A stretch of DNA of 64,000 nucleotides from Myxococcota bacterium. GTDB lineage: Bacteria > Myxococcota > B64-G9. The notes beneath the pieces are model-generated. The model made no database searches. It was not told where the DNA came from and worked only from the letters and a program-made list of their open reading frames with translations. Both the position numbers and the translations under genes were made by a program. Location: the NCBI GenBank assembly GCA_022710975.1, contig JAKLGA010000021.1:1-64000 (forward strand), read 5' to 3'. Of this stretch, positions 10,771 through 17,026 are shown in pieces. Every line of letters starts with the position of its first letter. The first letter of the stretch is position 1.

Positions 10771-10903
10771 GGCGACCTCCCGGAGGGCCCCATCTTACCT
10801 CGATCCCGGCCGCGCGGGGACACCCTGGTCCGCGCCGGATTCCTGACGATCTGCCGCCCTCCGAGACGGATTTCTGAGTGCCAGCGAGGCCCCGCCGGGT
10901 CTA

Positions 10904-10919
10904 TGTGATCGGAATCACA
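10904..10919. promoter_or_regulatory. CRP-like palindrome TGTGA-N6-TCACA
   Basis: TGTGATCGGAATCACA matches the consensus half-sites of CRP/FNR-family regulators exactly (TGTGA, six bases, TCACA) and is a 6-bp inverted repeat overall. It is centred about 46 bp upstream of the start predicted from the sigma-54 element at 10933-10948. It could bind a CRP-family activator or repressor, or be the site of the sigma-54 enhancer-binding protein. The bound protein is not encoded in the window. Confidence 0.6.
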
Positions 10920-10932
10920 GGCGTTCGCCGGC

Positions 10933-10948
10933 TGGCACGCGGCTTGCT
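10933..10948 (+). promoter_or_regulatory. Sigma-54 (-24/-12) promoter for the alpha-2-macroglobulin operon
   Basis: TGGCACG, four bases, TTGCT matches the sigma-54 consensus TGGCACG-N4-TTGCW at every position. The predicted transcription start is near 10958, leaving a leader of about 80 nt before the ATG at 11039, in the same orientation as the gene. Transcription would need an ATP-dependent enhancer-binding protein, linking the gene to a signalled response. Confidence 0.72.
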
Positions 10949-11038
10949 GCGTGCAGGGGCTGGCTCCAGGCGCAGGTCGTATCCAGGGGCGCGCCCAGGG
11001 GCCGATGAGCGATGGTCTGCCTTTCTGAGGAGGTTCCC

Positions 11039-14000
11039 ATGCAGAGCGCGGCGAGGGGCTGGAAGCTGGGCTGGGTGTGCCTGCTGGTGGGGGTCCTGGG
11101 CCTCGGCCTGGGGGCGTGCGCCGGAGGCGGCTCGCCGGGCGGGGAGGTGACCGAGCGGGACGGGCTCAAGCTCGACGAGAGCCGTCTGAGCGCCGTGCTC
11201 CACGGCGGCGAGCTGGCGCTCCAGGTCGTGGTGGAGCGCACCCGGGTGGCCGCCTTCGCCGGCCTGGTCGCGGTGACGCTCGAGGATCTCGACGGCAACC
11301 AGCTCGGCCGGCGCGAGGTGCGCTTCCGGCTGAACGAGCCGGAGGTGGCGCTCGACTTCGAGTTCCGCGGGCTGCCGCAGCTCGCGGACACGCAGGAGCT
11401 CGGCCGCTTCCTGATCCGCTACCAGGTCGGGTGGGACGACTCCTCCCTGTACGGCCGGCGGAGCCTGTACGCCATGGTGGAGAAGGTCGAGGCGCAGGTG
11501 CTGGCGCCCGCGCACATGTACGCCGGGACCGGCTCCTTCCTGCGGGTGCTGACCCGCGATCCGGGCAGCGGCCGCGCCCTGGCCGGGCTGGACGTGCGGG
11601 CCGAGCTGCAGCTCGGCGACACCAGCCTGCAGCTCGGCGCGGGCGTGACCGACGAGCACGGCACGGCCGAGGTGTACCTGCAGGCCCCGGCCGACGCGCA
11701 GGGCGGCGGCAAGCTGGTGGTGACCGTCCGCTCCCAGCAGGGCGGCGAGCAGCAGGTCGAGGGCTCGGTGGACGTGCTGCGCGAGGAGAAGATCCTGCTG
11801 ACCACCGACAAGCCGCTGTACCAGCCGGGCCAGGTGATGCACCTGCGCAGCCTGGCGCTCAGGCGGCCCGAGCTCAGGCCGGTGGGCGACGAGGAGGTGC
11901 TGTTCGAGGTGCGCGACGGCAAGGGCAACAAGGTCTTCAAGATGCTCGGCCGCACGGACGCCTTCGGCGTGGCCGCGGCCGACTTCCACCTGGCCAGCGA
12001 GGTGAACCTGGGCGACTTCGAGCTCCTGGCCCGGGTGGGCACCACCGAGGCGCGCAAGAGCGTCGAGGTCAAGCGCTACGCCCTGCCCAAGTACGGGGTG
12101 AGCTTCCGGCCCGACCGCGGCTACTACCTGCCCGGGGAGCGGGTCACCGGCCAGGTGTCCGCGCGCTACTTCTTCGGCCAGCCGGTCGGGGGCGAGGTGC
12201 GGGTCAAGGTCTACACCTTCGACGTGGGCCTGGCGGAGATCGGCGAGGTGGTGGGCGCGCTGGACGCGGACGGCCTGTGGAGCTTCGGCTTCGACCTGCC
12301 CACGGCCTTCGCCGGCATCGATCTGCTGCAGGGCAACGCCTACCTCCAGTTCGACGTGGAGGTGACCGATCTGGCCGCGCACACCGAGCGCGTGAGCGCG
12401 GTCTCGGTGGTGGCCTCGAGCTCGCTGGCGGTGGCCCTCATCCCGGAGAGCGGCGAGCTGGTCCCGGGCCTGCCCAACCGGGTGCACGTGGTGACCGCCG
12501 ACCCGACCGGCATGCCGGTCCCTGCCCAGGTCGAGGTGAGCGCGGCCGGGCTGCCGGCCGTCCAGCTCGACACCGACGCGCGCGGCTTCGGCAGCCTGAG
12601 CCTGACCCCGCCCGAGGGCGCCCTCACGCTGCACGTCGAGGCGGCGGACGCGCTCGGCAACCAGGTCGAGAAGGAGGTGACCTTCCAGGCCGGCCAGAGC
12701 GGCACGGCGCTGCTGCTGCGGGTGGATCGCCGGCTGGCCCAGGTGGGCGACACCCTGCGGCTGTCCGTCTTCGCCGCCGACAGCCTGGACCGGGTGTACC
12801 TGGACGTGATCAAGGGCAACCAGACCCTGCTGACCCACAGCCTGGACCTGGTGGACGGGCAGGCCAGCTACGAGCTCGAGGCCACCCCGGACATGGCGGG
12901 CAACGTGCAGTTCGACGCCTACTACCTGACCCGCGAGTCGCAGATCGTGCGCGACAGCCAGCTCGTGCTGGTGGAGGGCGCCCGCGAGCTGGCCGTCGAG
13001 GTGAGCCTGGACAAGCCGAGCTACCTGCCCGGCGAGACCGCCCAGGTCGCCTTCCAGGTCCGGGATCAGACCGGCAACGGGGTGCCGGCCGCGCTCGGCC
13101 TGGCGGTCGTGGACGAGGCGGTCTTCGCCCTGTCCGACGCCCGCCCGGGCCTGGCCGAGACCTTCTTCGAGATCGAGCAGGACATCCTCGCCCCGCGGGT
13201 GCAGGCCATCAGCTCGAGCGCGCTCGACGACTACCTGGACCCGGACCAGCCGCCGGAGGAGCGCGAGGCCGCGGCCGAGGTGGCCTTCGCCGCGGCGCGC
13301 GGCTTCAGCGGCTACGGCATCGAGAAGAACACCTACGTGGACGCGGCCAGGCTGGTGAGCGCGCTGGTCAAGGCCCGGGTGGATCGCGACGCCGAGGGGA
13401 TCCTCGCCGAGCTGCGCGAGCTGGCGGACCTCGGCGTGGTGACCCACGAGAACCTGCGCGCCTGGTTCGAGCGCGGCCCGCGCAGCTGGTACGATCCCTT
13501 CGGCCAGGCCTACCGGGCCGAGGTGCACGGCAGCTCGGAGTGGGACCAGACGGTGGTGTTCCTGTCGTCCGGCCCGGACGAGCTCGCGGGCTCGCCCGAC
13601 GACGTGGCCTCCAACGCCTACTACTCCTGGTACATCATGCAGGGCCGCAACGGCGGCTGGTGGGGCGAGGAGGACATGGCCGGCGGCGCGGACCCGGGCG
13701 GCCAGCCGCCCTACGCCAACGACGGCGGCGGCGAGGAGTGCGCGGGCGGGCAGTGCGGCGCGCCGGAGGACAAGACCTCCGCGGCGCCCCGGGTGCGCAG
13801 CTACTTCCCCGAGACCCTGTACGTGAACCCGGCCCTGCTGACCGACGCGAGCGGGCGGGCCGAGCTGGAGATCCCGCTGGCCGACAGCATCACCACCTGG
13901 CGCATGAGCTCGCTGGCCAGCTCGCTCGAGGGCCAGATCGGCAGCCGGGCCGACGGGCTGCTGGTGTTCCAGCCCTTCTTCGTGGACGTGGACTTCCCGG

Positions 14001-15901
14001 CCACCCTCACCCGAGGCGACGAGGTGTCGGTGCCGGTGGCGGTGTACAACTACCTGGACGTGCCCCAGCGCGTCGACCTCGAGGCCCAGCCCGAGCCCTG
14101 GTTCAGCCTGATCGGCTCCGGCAGCCAGAGCCTCGAGCTCCAGGCCGGCGGGGTGGGGGTGGTGTTCTTCAGCCTGCGGGCCGAGGTGGTCGGCTGGCAC
14201 GGGCTGACCGTGACCGGCATCGGCAGCGCCATGTCGGACGCCGTCCGGCGCACGGTGGAGATCGTCCCCGACGGCAAGGAGTTCCGCGTGAGCCACTCGG
14301 ACCGCCTGGGCGGCGAGGCCAGCGCGACCCTCTCCATCCCCGCGGAGGCCATCGACGGGGCCAGCCGCATCTTCGTCAAGGTCTACCCCGGGCTGATGAG
14401 CCAGGCGGTCGAGGGCCTGGACGCCCTGCTGCAGATCCCCAGCGGCTGCTTCGAGCAGACCACCACCACGGCCTGGCCGAACATCATGGTGCTCAACTAC
14501 CTGCGCGGGGCGAACCTGCTCACCCCGGCCATCGAGCTGAAGGCCCGCGACTACGTCAACCAGAGCTACCAGCGCATCCTGACCTTCGAGTGCCCCTCGG
14601 GTGGCTTCAACTGGTGGGTGGGCGACGACCCGGGCAACTCGATCCTCTCGGCCATGGCGCTGATGATGTTCGCCGACGCGCGCCAGTCGGTCGATCTGGA
14701 CCTCGACGTGGTCGCCCGCACCGAGGCCTTCCTGGTCTCCACCCAGCAGGCGGACGGCTCCTGGAGCGGCGAGGACCACCTGCACGCCGGCAACGAGGTG
14801 TACGGCCAGTCGCAGCTGCGCGCCTCGGCCTTCTGCACCTGGGGGCTGGCCATGAGCGACCGCGCCCTGCCGGCGGTGGACCGCGGCGTGGGCTACCTGC
14901 TCTCGGCCGTGGACGGCACCGACGACACCTACACCCAGGCCCTGGTGGCCTGCGCGCTGGCCTGGGCGGACCCGTACAGCCCGGCGCTGGCCAGCCTGCT
15001 GGCGGAGCTCGACGCCAAGAAGGCTGACGGCGGCAACGGGCTGGTCTACTGGCCCACCGACAGCGGCACCGCCAGCGGCGCCTGCGGGCAGAACGGCGAT
15101 CTGGAGACGACCGCGCTGGTGGCCCAGGCCATGATGCAGGCCGGGTCCTACCTGGACTCGGTCGACGGCGCCATCACCTGGCTCATCCAGCACAAGGACA
15201 GCTTCGGCACCTGGTCCACCACCCAGGGCACGGTGCAGGGCCTGCGGGCCATGACCCAGGCCATGGACTTCGCCGCCGGCCAGGACGCCAACGGCACGGT
15301 GCGGGTGGGCATCAACGGCCACGAGGACGTGTGCGACTTCGCCATCACCCCCGAGACCTCGGACGTGACCCGCATCTGCGAGCTCGACCAGCTCACCGGC
15401 GAGGGCGACAACGCCGTCAGCGTGGGGCTGAACGGCACGGGCAGCTTCCTGTACCAGGTGGTGGGCGTCTACTACCTGCCCTGGGAGCTGGTCGGCGATC
15501 CCCCGGGCACCCCGCTCAGCATCCAGGTCGAGTACGACCGCACCAACCTGGGCGTGGACGAGACCGTCGAGGCCCTGGTGACCGTGAGCTACAACGTGCC
15601 GGGCGAGAGGGTCGCGATGATCATGATCGACCTCGGCATCCCGCCGGGCTTCGATCTGCTGACCGAGGACCTGGCCGCGCTGGCCAACCCCGACGGCCCG
15701 ATCACCCGCTTCGAGGTGCGCGGGCGGCAGCTGTCGGTGTACGTGGACGAGCTGGCCTACGGGGAGCCGCTGAGCTTCAGCTTCCGCCTGCGGGCCAAGT
15801 TCCCGGTGAACGCCCAGAGCCCGGCCTCGGCCGTGTGGGCCTACTACAACCCGGAGGTGCGCGCCACGAGCAGGCCGGTCGAGTTCGTGGTGGCGCAGTA
15901 G
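11039..15901 (+). CDS. Thioester-containing alpha-2-macroglobulin lipoprotein
   Basis: A 1620-residue lipoprotein (lipobox LGAC, Cys27) of the alpha-2-macroglobulin/complement family, broad-range protease traps held in the periplasm or at the surface. Order: N-terminal MG domains; MG2-like LTTDKPLYQPGQ at about 253; VVDEAVFAL at about 689; a flexible Gly/Asp-rich insert (GGWWGEEDMAGGADPGG region, about 870-917) that looks like the bait region; the A2M signature RSYFPETLYVNP at about 919; the thioester motif GCFEQ with C1137 and Q1140; an alpha-toroid domain; and a C-terminal receptor-domain-like region. It is close in size to E. coli YfhM, but no penicillin-binding protein 1C gene is adjacent. 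The ATG follows GAGGAGG. Confidence 0.92.
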   Translation: MQSAARGWKLGWVCLLVGVLGLGLGACAGGGSPGGEVTERDGLKLDESRLSAVLHGGELALQVVVERTRVAAFAGLVAVTLEDLDGNQLGRREVRFRLNEPEVALDFEFRGLPQLADTQELGRFLIRYQVGWDDSSLYGRRSLYAMVEKVEAQVLAPAHMYAGTGSFLRVLTRDPGSGRALAGLDVRAELQLGDTSLQLGAGVTDEHGTAEVYLQAPADAQGGGKLVVTVRSQQGGEQQVEGSVDVLREEKILLTTDKPLYQPGQVMHLRSLALRRPELRPVGDEEVLFEVRDGKGNKVFKMLGRTDAFGVAAADFHLASEVNLGDFELLARVGTTEARKSVEVKRYALPKYGVSFRPDRGYYLPGERVTGQVSARYFFGQPVGGEVRVKVYTFDVGLAEIGEVVGALDADGLWSFGFDLPTAFAGIDLLQGNAYLQFDVEVTDLAAHTERVSAVSVVASSSLAVALIPESGELVPGLPNRVHVVTADPTGMPVPAQVEVSAAGLPAVQLDTDARGFGSLSLTPPEGALTLHVEAADALGNQVEKEVTFQAGQSGTALLLRVDRRLAQVGDTLRLSVFAADSLDRVYLDVIKGNQTLLTHSLDLVDGQASYELEATPDMAGNVQFDAYYLTRESQIVRDSQLVLVEGARELAVEVSLDKPSYLPGETAQVAFQVRDQTGNGVPAALGLAVVDEAVFALSDARPGLAETFFEIEQDILAPRVQAISSSALDDYLDPDQPPEEREAAAEVAFAAARGFSGYGIEKNTYVDAARLVSALVKARVDRDAEGILAELRELADLGVVTHENLRAWFERGPRSWYDPFGQAYRAEVHGSSEWDQTVVFLSSGPDELAGSPDDVASNAYYSWYIMQGRNGGWWGEEDMAGGADPGGQPPYANDGGGEECAGGQCGAPEDKTSAAPRVRSYFPETLYVNPALLTDASGRAELEIPLADSITTWRMSSLASSLEGQIGSRADGLLVFQPFFVDVDFPATLTRGDEVSVPVAVYNYLDVPQRVDLEAQPEPWFSLIGSGSQSLELQAGGVGVVFFSLRAEVVGWHGLTVTGIGSAMSDAVRRTVEIVPDGKEFRVSHSDRLGGEASATLSIPAEAIDGASRIFVKVYPGLMSQAVEGLDALLQIPSGCFEQTTTTAWPNIMVLNYLRGANLLTPAIELKARDYVNQSYQRILTFECPSGGFNWWVGDDPGNSILSAMALMMFADARQSVDLDLDVVARTEAFLVSTQQADGSWSGEDHLHAGNEVYGQSQLRASAFCTWGLAMSDRALPAVDRGVGYLLSAVDGTDDTYTQALVACALAWADPYSPALASLLAELDAKKADGGNGLVYWPTDSGTASGACGQNGDLETTALVAQAMMQAGSYLDSVDGAITWLIQHKDSFGTWSTTQGTVQGLRAMTQAMDFAAGQDANGTVRVGINGHEDVCDFAITPETSDVTRICELDQLTGEGDNAVSVGLNGTGSFLYQVVGVYYLPWELVGDPPGTPLSIQVEYDRTNLGVDETVEALVTVSYNVPGERVAMIMIDLGIPPGFDLLTEDLAALANPDGPITRFEVRGRQLSVYVDELAYGEPLSFSFRLRAKFPVNAQSPASAVWAYYNPEVRATSRPVEFVVAQ

Positions 15902-15913
15902 GGGCGCCGGGTC

Positions 15914-17026
15914 ATGCGGGCGCCGCGAGACCTCGCCCTGGCCGCCCTGGCCGTCGTGGCGTGCGGGGCGTCCGCCTGCGGGGCCGGGACTCCCCTGGAG
16001 GCGCTGTCAGGGGAGCCCCGCGCCCTGGTGACCTCGCGCGGCGATCAGCTCCACCCGGCCCTGGCGGGTGACTGGCTGGTGTGGTTCGACCTGTCGGAGG
16101 ACCCGGACGGGAGCTGCCCGGCCAGCTCCTACTGCTACGAGCCCGGCTGCGACCCGACCTGCCAGGGGCGGGTGATGTCCCTCGAGCTCTCGTCCGGCGA
16201 GGCCCGGGTGCTCTCCAACCCGATCCTGCAGGAGACCGCCCCGGCCATCGCCGGCGGGCGGGCGGCGTGGCGCTGCCAGGACGCGGGCGGGCGGGGGCTG
16301 TGCCTGTCGCCGCTGGGGGCCGACCGGCAGACCTTCCTGGACGAGGTGGGCTGGGACGACTACGCCAACGACCTGACCCAGCCGCTGGCCGTGTCCGGGG
16401 ACACCCTGGTCTGGCCGCGCTACCGCTACGACGGGGGCGCCACGCCCTTCAAGCTGATGAAGGCCGACCTGACGACCGGGGTGCGCCAGGCGCTGCTCGC
16501 CCTGCCGTCCTTCCCCGCCGCCTGGGCCCTGGCCGGCCGGCGCGCGGCCTGGGTGACCACGGCCTGGTACGACCAGGGCTACCGCTCCCGGCTCGAGACG
16601 CTGGACCTCGACACGGGCGAGCAGCGGCTGGTGCTGGAGACCGGCCAGGTGATCTTCGGCCTGGCCGCGGCCGGGGAGCTGCTGGCCTGGAAGCAGGGCA
16701 CCCGCCAGGAGTGGGAGGGCGAAGAGAACGAGGTGCACGTCTTCTACCTGGACGGGGCCGGGGAGATCCAGCAGGCCGACGGGCCCGAGGCGCTGGTGTC
16801 GGAGGAGTCCGGGGTGGTGGCCGGCCAGGGCGAGCTCTTCTGGCTGGACTACCGCGAGGGCGTCTACCGCCTGGCCGCGCGCGACCTGGCCGCGGGCACG
16901 GAGGCGCTGGTCACGCCCGAGGAGGCGGTGCTGGGCGCCTACCAGCTCCCGGCGGTCTCGGGCGGGCGCCTGGTGTGGGGCGATCGCCGCGGCGGCGACT
17001 GGGATCTGTACGTGCTGGAGCGCTGA
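15914..17026 (+). CDS. Beta-propeller-like lipoprotein downstream of A2M
   Basis: A 370-residue lipoprotein with lipobox GASAC (Cys22). The mature part shows repeating units of the type ...AGGRAAWRCQD..., SGDTLVWPRYRY, AGRRAAWVTTAW, AAGELLAWKQ, GGRLVWGDRRGGDWDLYV, that is W-containing strands ending blades of a TolB/YncE-like beta-propeller (five or six blades). An early cysteine set CPASSYCYEPGCDPTC probably forms disulfides. It starts 12 nt after the A2M stop with only a weak ribosome-binding site, so it probably relies on translation from the upstream gene. Co-expression suggests an envelope partner of the A2M; no enzymatic residues are evident. Confidence 0.75.
   Translation: MRAPRDLALAALAVVACGASACGAGTPLEALSGEPRALVTSRGDQLHPALAGDWLVWFDLSEDPDGSCPASSYCYEPGCDPTCQGRVMSLELSSGEARVLSNPILQETAPAIAGGRAAWRCQDAGGRGLCLSPLGADRQTFLDEVGWDDYANDLTQPLAVSGDTLVWPRYRYDGGATPFKLMKADLTTGVRQALLALPSFPAAWALAGRRAAWVTTAWYDQGYRSRLETLDLDTGEQRLVLETGQVIFGLAAAGELLAWKQGTRQEWEGEENEVHVFYLDGAGEIQQADGPEALVSEESGVVAGQGELFWLDYREGVYRLAARDLAAGTEALVTPEEAVLGAYQLPAVSGGRLVWGDRRGGDWDLYVLER

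What the first reader, a model, noticed from the sequence alone, without database searches (positions are those of the whole stretch)
10904..10948. Perfect sigma-54 promoter and CRP-consensus palindrome upstream of an alpha-2-macroglobulin
Seen: TGGCACG-N4-TTGCT exactly matches the -24/-12 consensus, about 90 bp before the A2M start in the right orientation, with TGTGA-N6-TCACA centred about 46 bp before the predicted start. Inference: this bacterial protease trap is inducible through an enhancer-binding protein, with a possible CRP-type input.
Basis: partly seen in the sequence, partly recalled or inferred. Interest (0 to 1): 0.65.

Follow-up and report, generated by a model that had tools for sequence, protein, structure and literature searches.

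The report
Conserved sigma-54/CRP switch for bacterial macroglobulin
The gene for a bacterial protease-trapping lipoprotein related to human alpha-2-macroglobulin is preceded by a conserved three-part switch (paired activator landing sites, a CRP-type regulator site and a sigma-54 promoter), which suggests that the trap is made on demand rather than all the time.

Summary
Both motifs are present as described. TGGCACG-N4-TTGCT (10933-10948) and TGTGA-N6-TCACA (10904-10919) have no mismatch and are the only perfect copies in the window. Conservation shows this is not chance: all six A2M orthologues in the family (window plus five other genera, 63-67% protein identity) keep the sigma-54 site; the palindrome is intact in four, weakened in one and lost in one, at fixed spacings. 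This site plus promoter occurs 15 times in 195 genomes of the phylum, against 0 for the reversed pattern; 14 of the 15 precede genes with a lipoprotein-like start, including five A2M and one serpin. The genome has one rpoN, about 41 activators and one CRP with the E. coli-type recognition helix. The activator is unidentified; a PspF encoded next to A2M in relatives was tested and not supported. Whether CRP helps or blocks is unknown, and there are no transcript or binding data. A well-supported new variant of a known kind of promoter.

The parts
10835..10846 (+). Upstream activator site 1, CCGGATTCCTGA (6 of 8 to TCAG-N4-CTGA), centre about -118
   Evidence: conserved pair in five of six orthologous promoters at 30-31 bp, 19 bp in G002; summed score beyond 2000 of 2000 shuffles
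10866..10877 (+). Upstream activator site 2, ACGGATTTCTGA (6 of 8; TTTCTGAG half conserved), centre about -87
   Evidence: conserved in orthologues; TTCTGA-N50-80-sigma54 25 listed matches against 1 control in 97 genomes, TTCTGAG form 15 against 0 in 195 genomes
10904..10919 (.). CRP-type palindrome TGTGATCGGAATCACA, centre about -47
   Evidence: 0 mismatches; intact in 4 of 6 orthologues, weakened in 1, lost in 1; 23-24 bp from site 2, 13 or 22 bp from the promoter
10933..10948 (+). Sigma-54 -24/-12 promoter TGGCACGCGGCTTGCT
   Evidence: 0 mismatches; conserved in 6 of 6 family orthologues; motif enriched in genome 118 against 20
11027..11033 (+). Shine-Dalgarno sequence GAGGAGG
   Evidence: sequence, 5 bases before ATG 11039
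11039..15901 (+). Alpha-2-macroglobulin-type lipoprotein, 1620 aa: MG2, MG3, bait region, A2M, thioester domain with PSGCFEQT, receptor-binding domain
   Evidence: Pfam matches above cut-offs, lipobox LGAC and CxEQ in sequence
15914..17026 (+). Predicted beta-propeller lipoprotein, 12 bp after A2M, probably co-transcribed
   Evidence: weak match to TIGR04275; homologue (38-40% identity) directly follows A2M in four relatives

Best explanation
10835-10948 is a composite enhancer-promoter for the A2M gene and probably its beta-propeller partner. Sigma-54 RNA polymerase sits in a silent closed complex at -24/-12. An enhancer-binding protein, not yet identified, binds as dimers to two TCAG-N4-CTGA sites at about -87 and -118, on one face of the helix, and loops over to open the complex. 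A CRP-family dimer, most likely the single CRP with a SRETVSR recognition helix, binds between them at about -47, bends the loop DNA and so gates activator contact. I lean towards CRP shaping a productive loop (as IHF does at other sigma-54 promoters), because its spacing to the activator site is fixed, but the sign is open. Shown: the sequences, their conservation, enrichment and spacing. Inferred: binding, looping, induction, the sign of the CRP effect and the signal. The product would be a surface protease trap made under envelope or competitor stress (inference).
For: Perfect motifs in place. Sigma-54 site in 6 of 6 family orthologues; palindrome intact in 4, in register but weak in 1. Palindrome-plus-promoter composite hits only A2M promoters in this family. 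Paired upstream sites conserved, 0 of 2000 shuffles as good, and upstream site plus sigma-54 found 25 times against 1 in 97 genomes and 15 against 0 in 195 genomes. One rpoN, about 41 activators. One CRP with the E. coli-type recognition helix among 20 inspected cyclic-nucleotide-binding proteins. No sigma-70-like promoter in 10771-11045. IHF at Pu sits between activator sites and promoter (PMC3900584), and a protein bound in the loop can quench or raise output by helical phase (PMC4740811).
Against: No expression or binding data. The window's own upstream sites match only 6 of 8 and G006's match less well. The activator is not identified. G003 has lost the palindrome and G002 has a weak one, so CRP input is not essential to the module. 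The two promoter spacings (13 and 22 bp) differ by 9, not a full 10.5-bp turn. CRP effects at sigma-54 promoters described so far are inhibitory (PMC3900584), against my preferred sign.
Confidence: 0.72

Rival explanations
1. Same promoter and activator, but CRP is an anti-activator: when its ligand is high, CRP at about -47 contacts sigma-54 polymerase or misdirects the loop and keeps A2M off. This differs from the best explanation only in the sign of the CRP effect; the confidence is a separate estimate and overlaps with it.
For: cAMP-CRP inhibits the sigma-54 promoters dctA, glnAp2, glnHp2, ast, several nif promoters and Pu in E. coli (PMC3900584); proteins in the loop often quench (PMC4740811).
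Against: The palindrome keeps a fixed 23-24 bp distance to activator site 2 in five genomes while its distance to the promoter varies, which fits help with loop geometry at least as well. No data on sign.
Confidence: 0.35
2. The activator is PspF: A2M belongs to the phage-shock (envelope stress) regulon.
For: A pspF-pspA-pspC cluster lies directly upstream of A2M in three genera (L009, L010, L012); TIGR02974, TIGR02977 and TIGR02978 identify the genes at or near their cut-offs.
Against: The six pspF-pspA intergenic regions lack the paired TCAG-N4-CTGA sites. This PspF is missing from the window's genome, which has only a 47% homologue, and from the best matches in Myxococcaceae, G059 and G075, which use the same upstream site.
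Confidence: 0.1
3. The palindrome is the operator of another CRP/FNR-type regulator or is a class II CRP site of a sigma-70 promoter, unrelated to sigma-54.
For: The palindrome would fit a centre about 40 bp before a start near 10952.
Against: No sigma-70-like hexamers in the region; order and spacing with the sigma-54 site are conserved; only one CRP-type protein with a matching recognition helix was found.
Confidence: 0.05
4. Both motifs are chance matches in GC-rich sequence.
For: At up to 2 mismatches neither motif is more frequent in the window than in shuffles.
Against: Motifs, order and spacing are conserved in other genera, and the composite patterns are specific.
Confidence: 0.02

Closest known systems
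Sigma-54 promoters with paired activator sites and a DNA-bending site between them, such as Pseudomonas Pu (XylR sites, IHF site, -12/-24; PMC3900584)
   Same: Two activator sites upstream, a bending-protein site in the loop, -24/-12 promoter.
   Different: The loop site here is a CRP palindrome, the activator operator TCAG-N4-CTGA belongs to no activator I could identify, and the target is a protease trap.
CRP-modulated sigma-54 promoters of E. coli (glnAp2, dctA; PMC3900584)
   Same: CRP acts upstream of a sigma-54 promoter.
   Different: There the effect is inhibitory and on nitrogen or carbon genes; here the sign is unknown and the palindrome is conserved at fixed spacing next to activator sites.
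Type I (thioester) bacterial A2M with PBP1c (Salmonella Sa-A2M, E. coli; PMC5764988, PMC4498604)
   Same: Bait region, CxEQ thioester, periplasmic or surface lipoprotein trap.
   Different: No PBP1c gene beside it; sequence closer to CD109, A2ML1 and TEP1 than to solved bacterial A2Ms; followed by a beta-propeller gene.
Type II A2M MagD and the mag operon of Pseudomonas aeruginosa (PMC5764988, PMC12663445)
   Same: A regulated bacterial A2M linked to defence against attackers.
   Different: MagD lacks the thioester, lies in a six-gene operon and is in the GacS/GacA regulon, not described as sigma-54 dependent.

Membership tests
Sigma-54 promoter | GG and GC of the -24/-12 consensus with correct spacing | tested here: met
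   TGGCACGCGGCTTGCT, 0 mismatches, conserved in 6 of 6 orthologues
Sigma-54 promoter | RpoN and activators encoded in the genome | tested here: met
   one RpoN, about 41 strong activator-domain matches
Sigma-54 promoter | Upstream activator sites about 80-150 bp before the start | tested here: met
   paired conserved TCAG-N4-CTGA-type sites at about -87 and -118; protein binding not tested
Sigma-54 promoter | Transcription dependent on rpoN and ATP-driven activator | not testable with these tools
   needs experiment
CRP operator | TGTGA-N6-TCACA palindrome under conservation | tested here: met
   0 mismatches; intact in 4 of 6 orthologues
CRP operator | A CRP with a matching recognition helix in the genome | tested here: met
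   L062: cNMP-binding and CRP helix-turn-helix domains, SSRETVSR
CRP operator | Binding that depends on cAMP | not testable with these tools
   ligand of the L062 protein unknown
PspF (phage-shock) regulon | PspF orthologue present wherever the A2M promoter is | tested here: not met
   found in G002, G003, G005, G006, G007 but not in the window's own genome
PspF (phage-shock) regulon | Same upstream sites at pspA and at A2M | tested here: not met
   six pspF-pspA intergenic regions lack the paired sites
Thioester (type I) alpha-2-macroglobulin | Bait region, A2M, thioester (CxEQ) and receptor-binding domains | tested here: met
   Pfam PF07703, PF00207, PF07678, PF07677 above cut-offs; PSGCFEQT
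Thioester (type I) alpha-2-macroglobulin | Adjacent PBP1c gene, common in type I bacterial A2Ms | tested here: not met
   the neighbours whose domains were searched are not PBP1c; this is a frequent, not a defining, feature
Thioester (type I) alpha-2-macroglobulin | Protease trapping | not testable with these tools
   needs experiment

The most novel reading that the evidence does not exclude
An undescribed activator with the operator CTCAG-N4-CTGAG runs an inducible lipoprotein regulon across this phylum that includes protease inhibitors (thioester A2M, serpin), a bacterial counterpart of an acute-phase response, gated in one family by CRP acting as the loop-bending protein.
Probability: 0.2. 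Interest if true: 0.7.

Novelty: new variant of a known kind. Interest (0 to 1): 0.45.

Why it matters
How bacterial thioester A2Ms are controlled is little known; the regulated case found in the literature here is the thioester-less mag operon under GacS/GacA. A conserved enhancer, CRP site and sigma-54 promoter say that this trap is switched, give exact sites to mutate, and define an operator with which to look for the activator and its signal. The same operator before a serpin and other surface lipoproteins makes a regulon testable. A natural CRP site in the loop position also offers a test of whether CRP can help, rather than only block, sigma-54 transcription.

Tried and rejected
PspF as activator: suggested by the psp-A2M gene order in three genera, rejected because the psp intergenic regions lack the upstream sites and the window's genome lacks this PspF. 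Activator gene near other targets of the same upstream site: of 19 stretches fetched, one held an activator gene (G059), about what chance gives. Own-genome search for CTGA pairs before sigma-54 was void because my pattern was one base too long; the correct later pattern finds the A2M site as the only one in this genome. Structured leader RNA: no Rfam match and no unusual folding of 10959-11050 (z = 0.8). Sigma-70 promoter or terminator in the intergenic region: none. Literature searches for A2M with sigma-54 gave nothing on this link.

Full report
Observation. The sequence holds TGTGATCGGAATCACA at 10904-10919 and TGGCACGCGGCTTGCT at 10933-10948, both without mismatch and both the only perfect copies in the window. 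The A2M start codon is ATG 11039, with GAGGAGG at 11027-11033. The sigma-54 element ends 91 bp before it, and the palindrome centre lies about 47 bp before the predicted transcript start. Counts at two mismatches are not above shuffled sequence, so the window alone could not settle the matter. In the whole genome (7.13 Mb, 98.6% complete) the sigma-54 pattern is enriched about six-fold over its reversed control (118 against 20) and the palindrome about five-fold (24 places against 5).

Machinery. The genome encodes one RpoN and about 41 strong matches to the sigma-54 activator domain. Of 21 cyclic-nucleotide-binding matches, 20 were inspected as open frames. One, L062 at G000:C24:401739, has a CRP-type helix-turn-helix with SSRETVSR, the arrangement of recognition-helix residues of E. 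coli CRP. Its ligand is unknown.

Conservation. Orthologues of the A2M (63-67% identity) were found in five other genera of the same family. Their upstream regions were read. All six promoters carry TGGCAC-N5-TTGCT. Four carry an intact palindrome (window; TGTGACCGGGATCACA in G006; TGTGACCGGGATCACG in G007; TGTGACCGAGATCACA in G005). G002 has TGTAACCGTGATCTCA in register, and G003 has lost it. The distance from palindrome to promoter is 13, 13, 13, 22 and 22 bp. A search of 97 genomes for palindrome plus promoter hit, in this family, only the A2M promoters of G000, G005, G006 and G007; elsewhere it hit one element of G034, present on two contigs, before a different gene. Three control hits occurred. 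Among more distant A2M genes of other families, L024 and L025 have a sigma-54-like site with 1 mismatch and L027 with 2, all without the palindrome; three others have none within 2 mismatches at a credible place.

The missing element. The alignment shows a third conserved element: GATTTCTGAG 23-24 bp before TATGTGA, and a second copy usually 30-31 bp further upstream. In G003 and G005 these are TCAGATTTCTGA and, further up, TCAGAGATTTGA and TCAGAGTTCTGA: a palindrome TCAG-N4-CTGA. The summed two-site score over six promoters (80) was not reached in 2000 dinucleotide-preserving shuffles (maximum 72). The copies in the window score 6 of 8; in G006 no 12-mer reaches 6 and the site rests on aligned half-sites. 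TTCTGA-N50-80-TGGCAC-N5-TTGC gave 25 listed matches in 97 genomes against 1 for the reversed pattern; in the window's genome the A2M promoter is the only one. The stricter TTCTGAG form gave 15 matches in 195 genomes against 0. Such paired sites at about -87 and -118 are where enhancer-binding proteins bind at sigma-54 promoters (established knowledge; an example is described in PMC3900584).

What else uses this operator. The 15 strict places precede five A2M genes, one serpin (Pfam PF00079, E = 3.6e-58, G075), seven members of one Myxococcaceae lipoprotein family with a weak AurF match, one EGF-like lipoprotein, and one place where the first gene could not be called. Fourteen start with a lipoprotein-like signal by eye; no signal-peptide predictor was run. 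That fits the published idea that sigma-54 controls the cell exterior (PMC3162934).

Which activator. In L009, L010 and L012 the A2M gene follows a pspF-pspA-pspC cluster (TIGR02974 438.8 bits against a cut-off of 443.6; TIGR02978 above cut-off). This made PspF a candidate. It was tested in two ways and failed both: six pspF-pspA intergenic regions lack the paired TCAG-N4-CTGA sites, and the window's genome has no such PspF, only a 47% homologue next to another pspA-like gene whose promoter lacks the sites. The activator remains unidentified.

Mechanism. Sigma-54 polymerase waits at -24/-12; an activator on the paired sites loops over and opens it. The CRP-type dimer sits in the loop, where IHF sits at the Pu promoter (PMC3900584). 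The CRP effects at sigma-54 promoters reviewed there are inhibitory, through contact with polymerase or a wrongly placed bend. Synthetic enhancers show that a protein in the loop can quench or slightly raise output depending on helical phase (PMC4740811). The constant distance from palindrome to activator site leads me to favour, weakly, a loop-shaping helper. The sign is a real uncertainty: I give the anti-activator reading 0.35 as a separate estimate; it shares everything but the sign with the best explanation.

The product. The protein has the A2M domains above Pfam cut-offs, a CxEQ thioester and a lipobox. Its solved relatives are CD109, A2ML1, A2M, TEP1 and complement; no bacterial A2M structure appeared at E up to 0.001. 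It is followed at 12 bp by a beta-propeller gene whose homologue also follows A2M in the relatives. Thioester A2Ms trap proteases (PMC5764988); that this one does so, and against what, is inference.

Verdict. Observation confirmed, interpretation supported and extended, mechanism inferred: a well-defined new variant of a known kind of promoter.

Noticed in passing
L098:282-1496 (-), G075:C32: A serpin-type lipoprotein gene sits behind the same upstream site (CTCAGGATTCTGAG) and a sigma-54 promoter: a second protease inhibitor with this operator, in another family.
   Followed up: partly
L101, L099, L104, L112, L126, L127, L128 (Myxococcaceae): A family of lipoproteins of about 440 aa with a weak AurF (di-iron oxygenase) match carries CTCAGGTTTCTGAG-type sites and sigma-54 promoters; function unknown.
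   Followed up: partly
L009:79-2701, L010:2-2506, L133:5368-7906: A divergent pspF / pspA-pspC cluster lies directly upstream of A2M in three genera but not in the window.
   Followed up: yes
L006:757-2598 (G000:C9): In the window's genome a second PspF-like activator is followed by a pspA-like gene with a perfect sigma-54 promoter (TGGCACGCGGGTTGCT) between them.
   Followed up: partly
window:11039-15901: This bacterial A2M matches solved CD109, A2ML1 and insect TEP1, and no bacterial A2M structure at E up to 0.001; its relation to animal A2Ms deserves a tree.
   Followed up: no
L089:1710-1820 and L090 (G034): The full order TTTCTGA, TGTGATCTGCGTCACC, TGGCACCGCACTTGCA recurs in a distant family before a different secreted-protein gene.
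   Followed up: partly
window:9139-10770 (-): The divergent neighbour of A2M (543 aa) has no Pfam or NCBIfam match.
   Followed up: no
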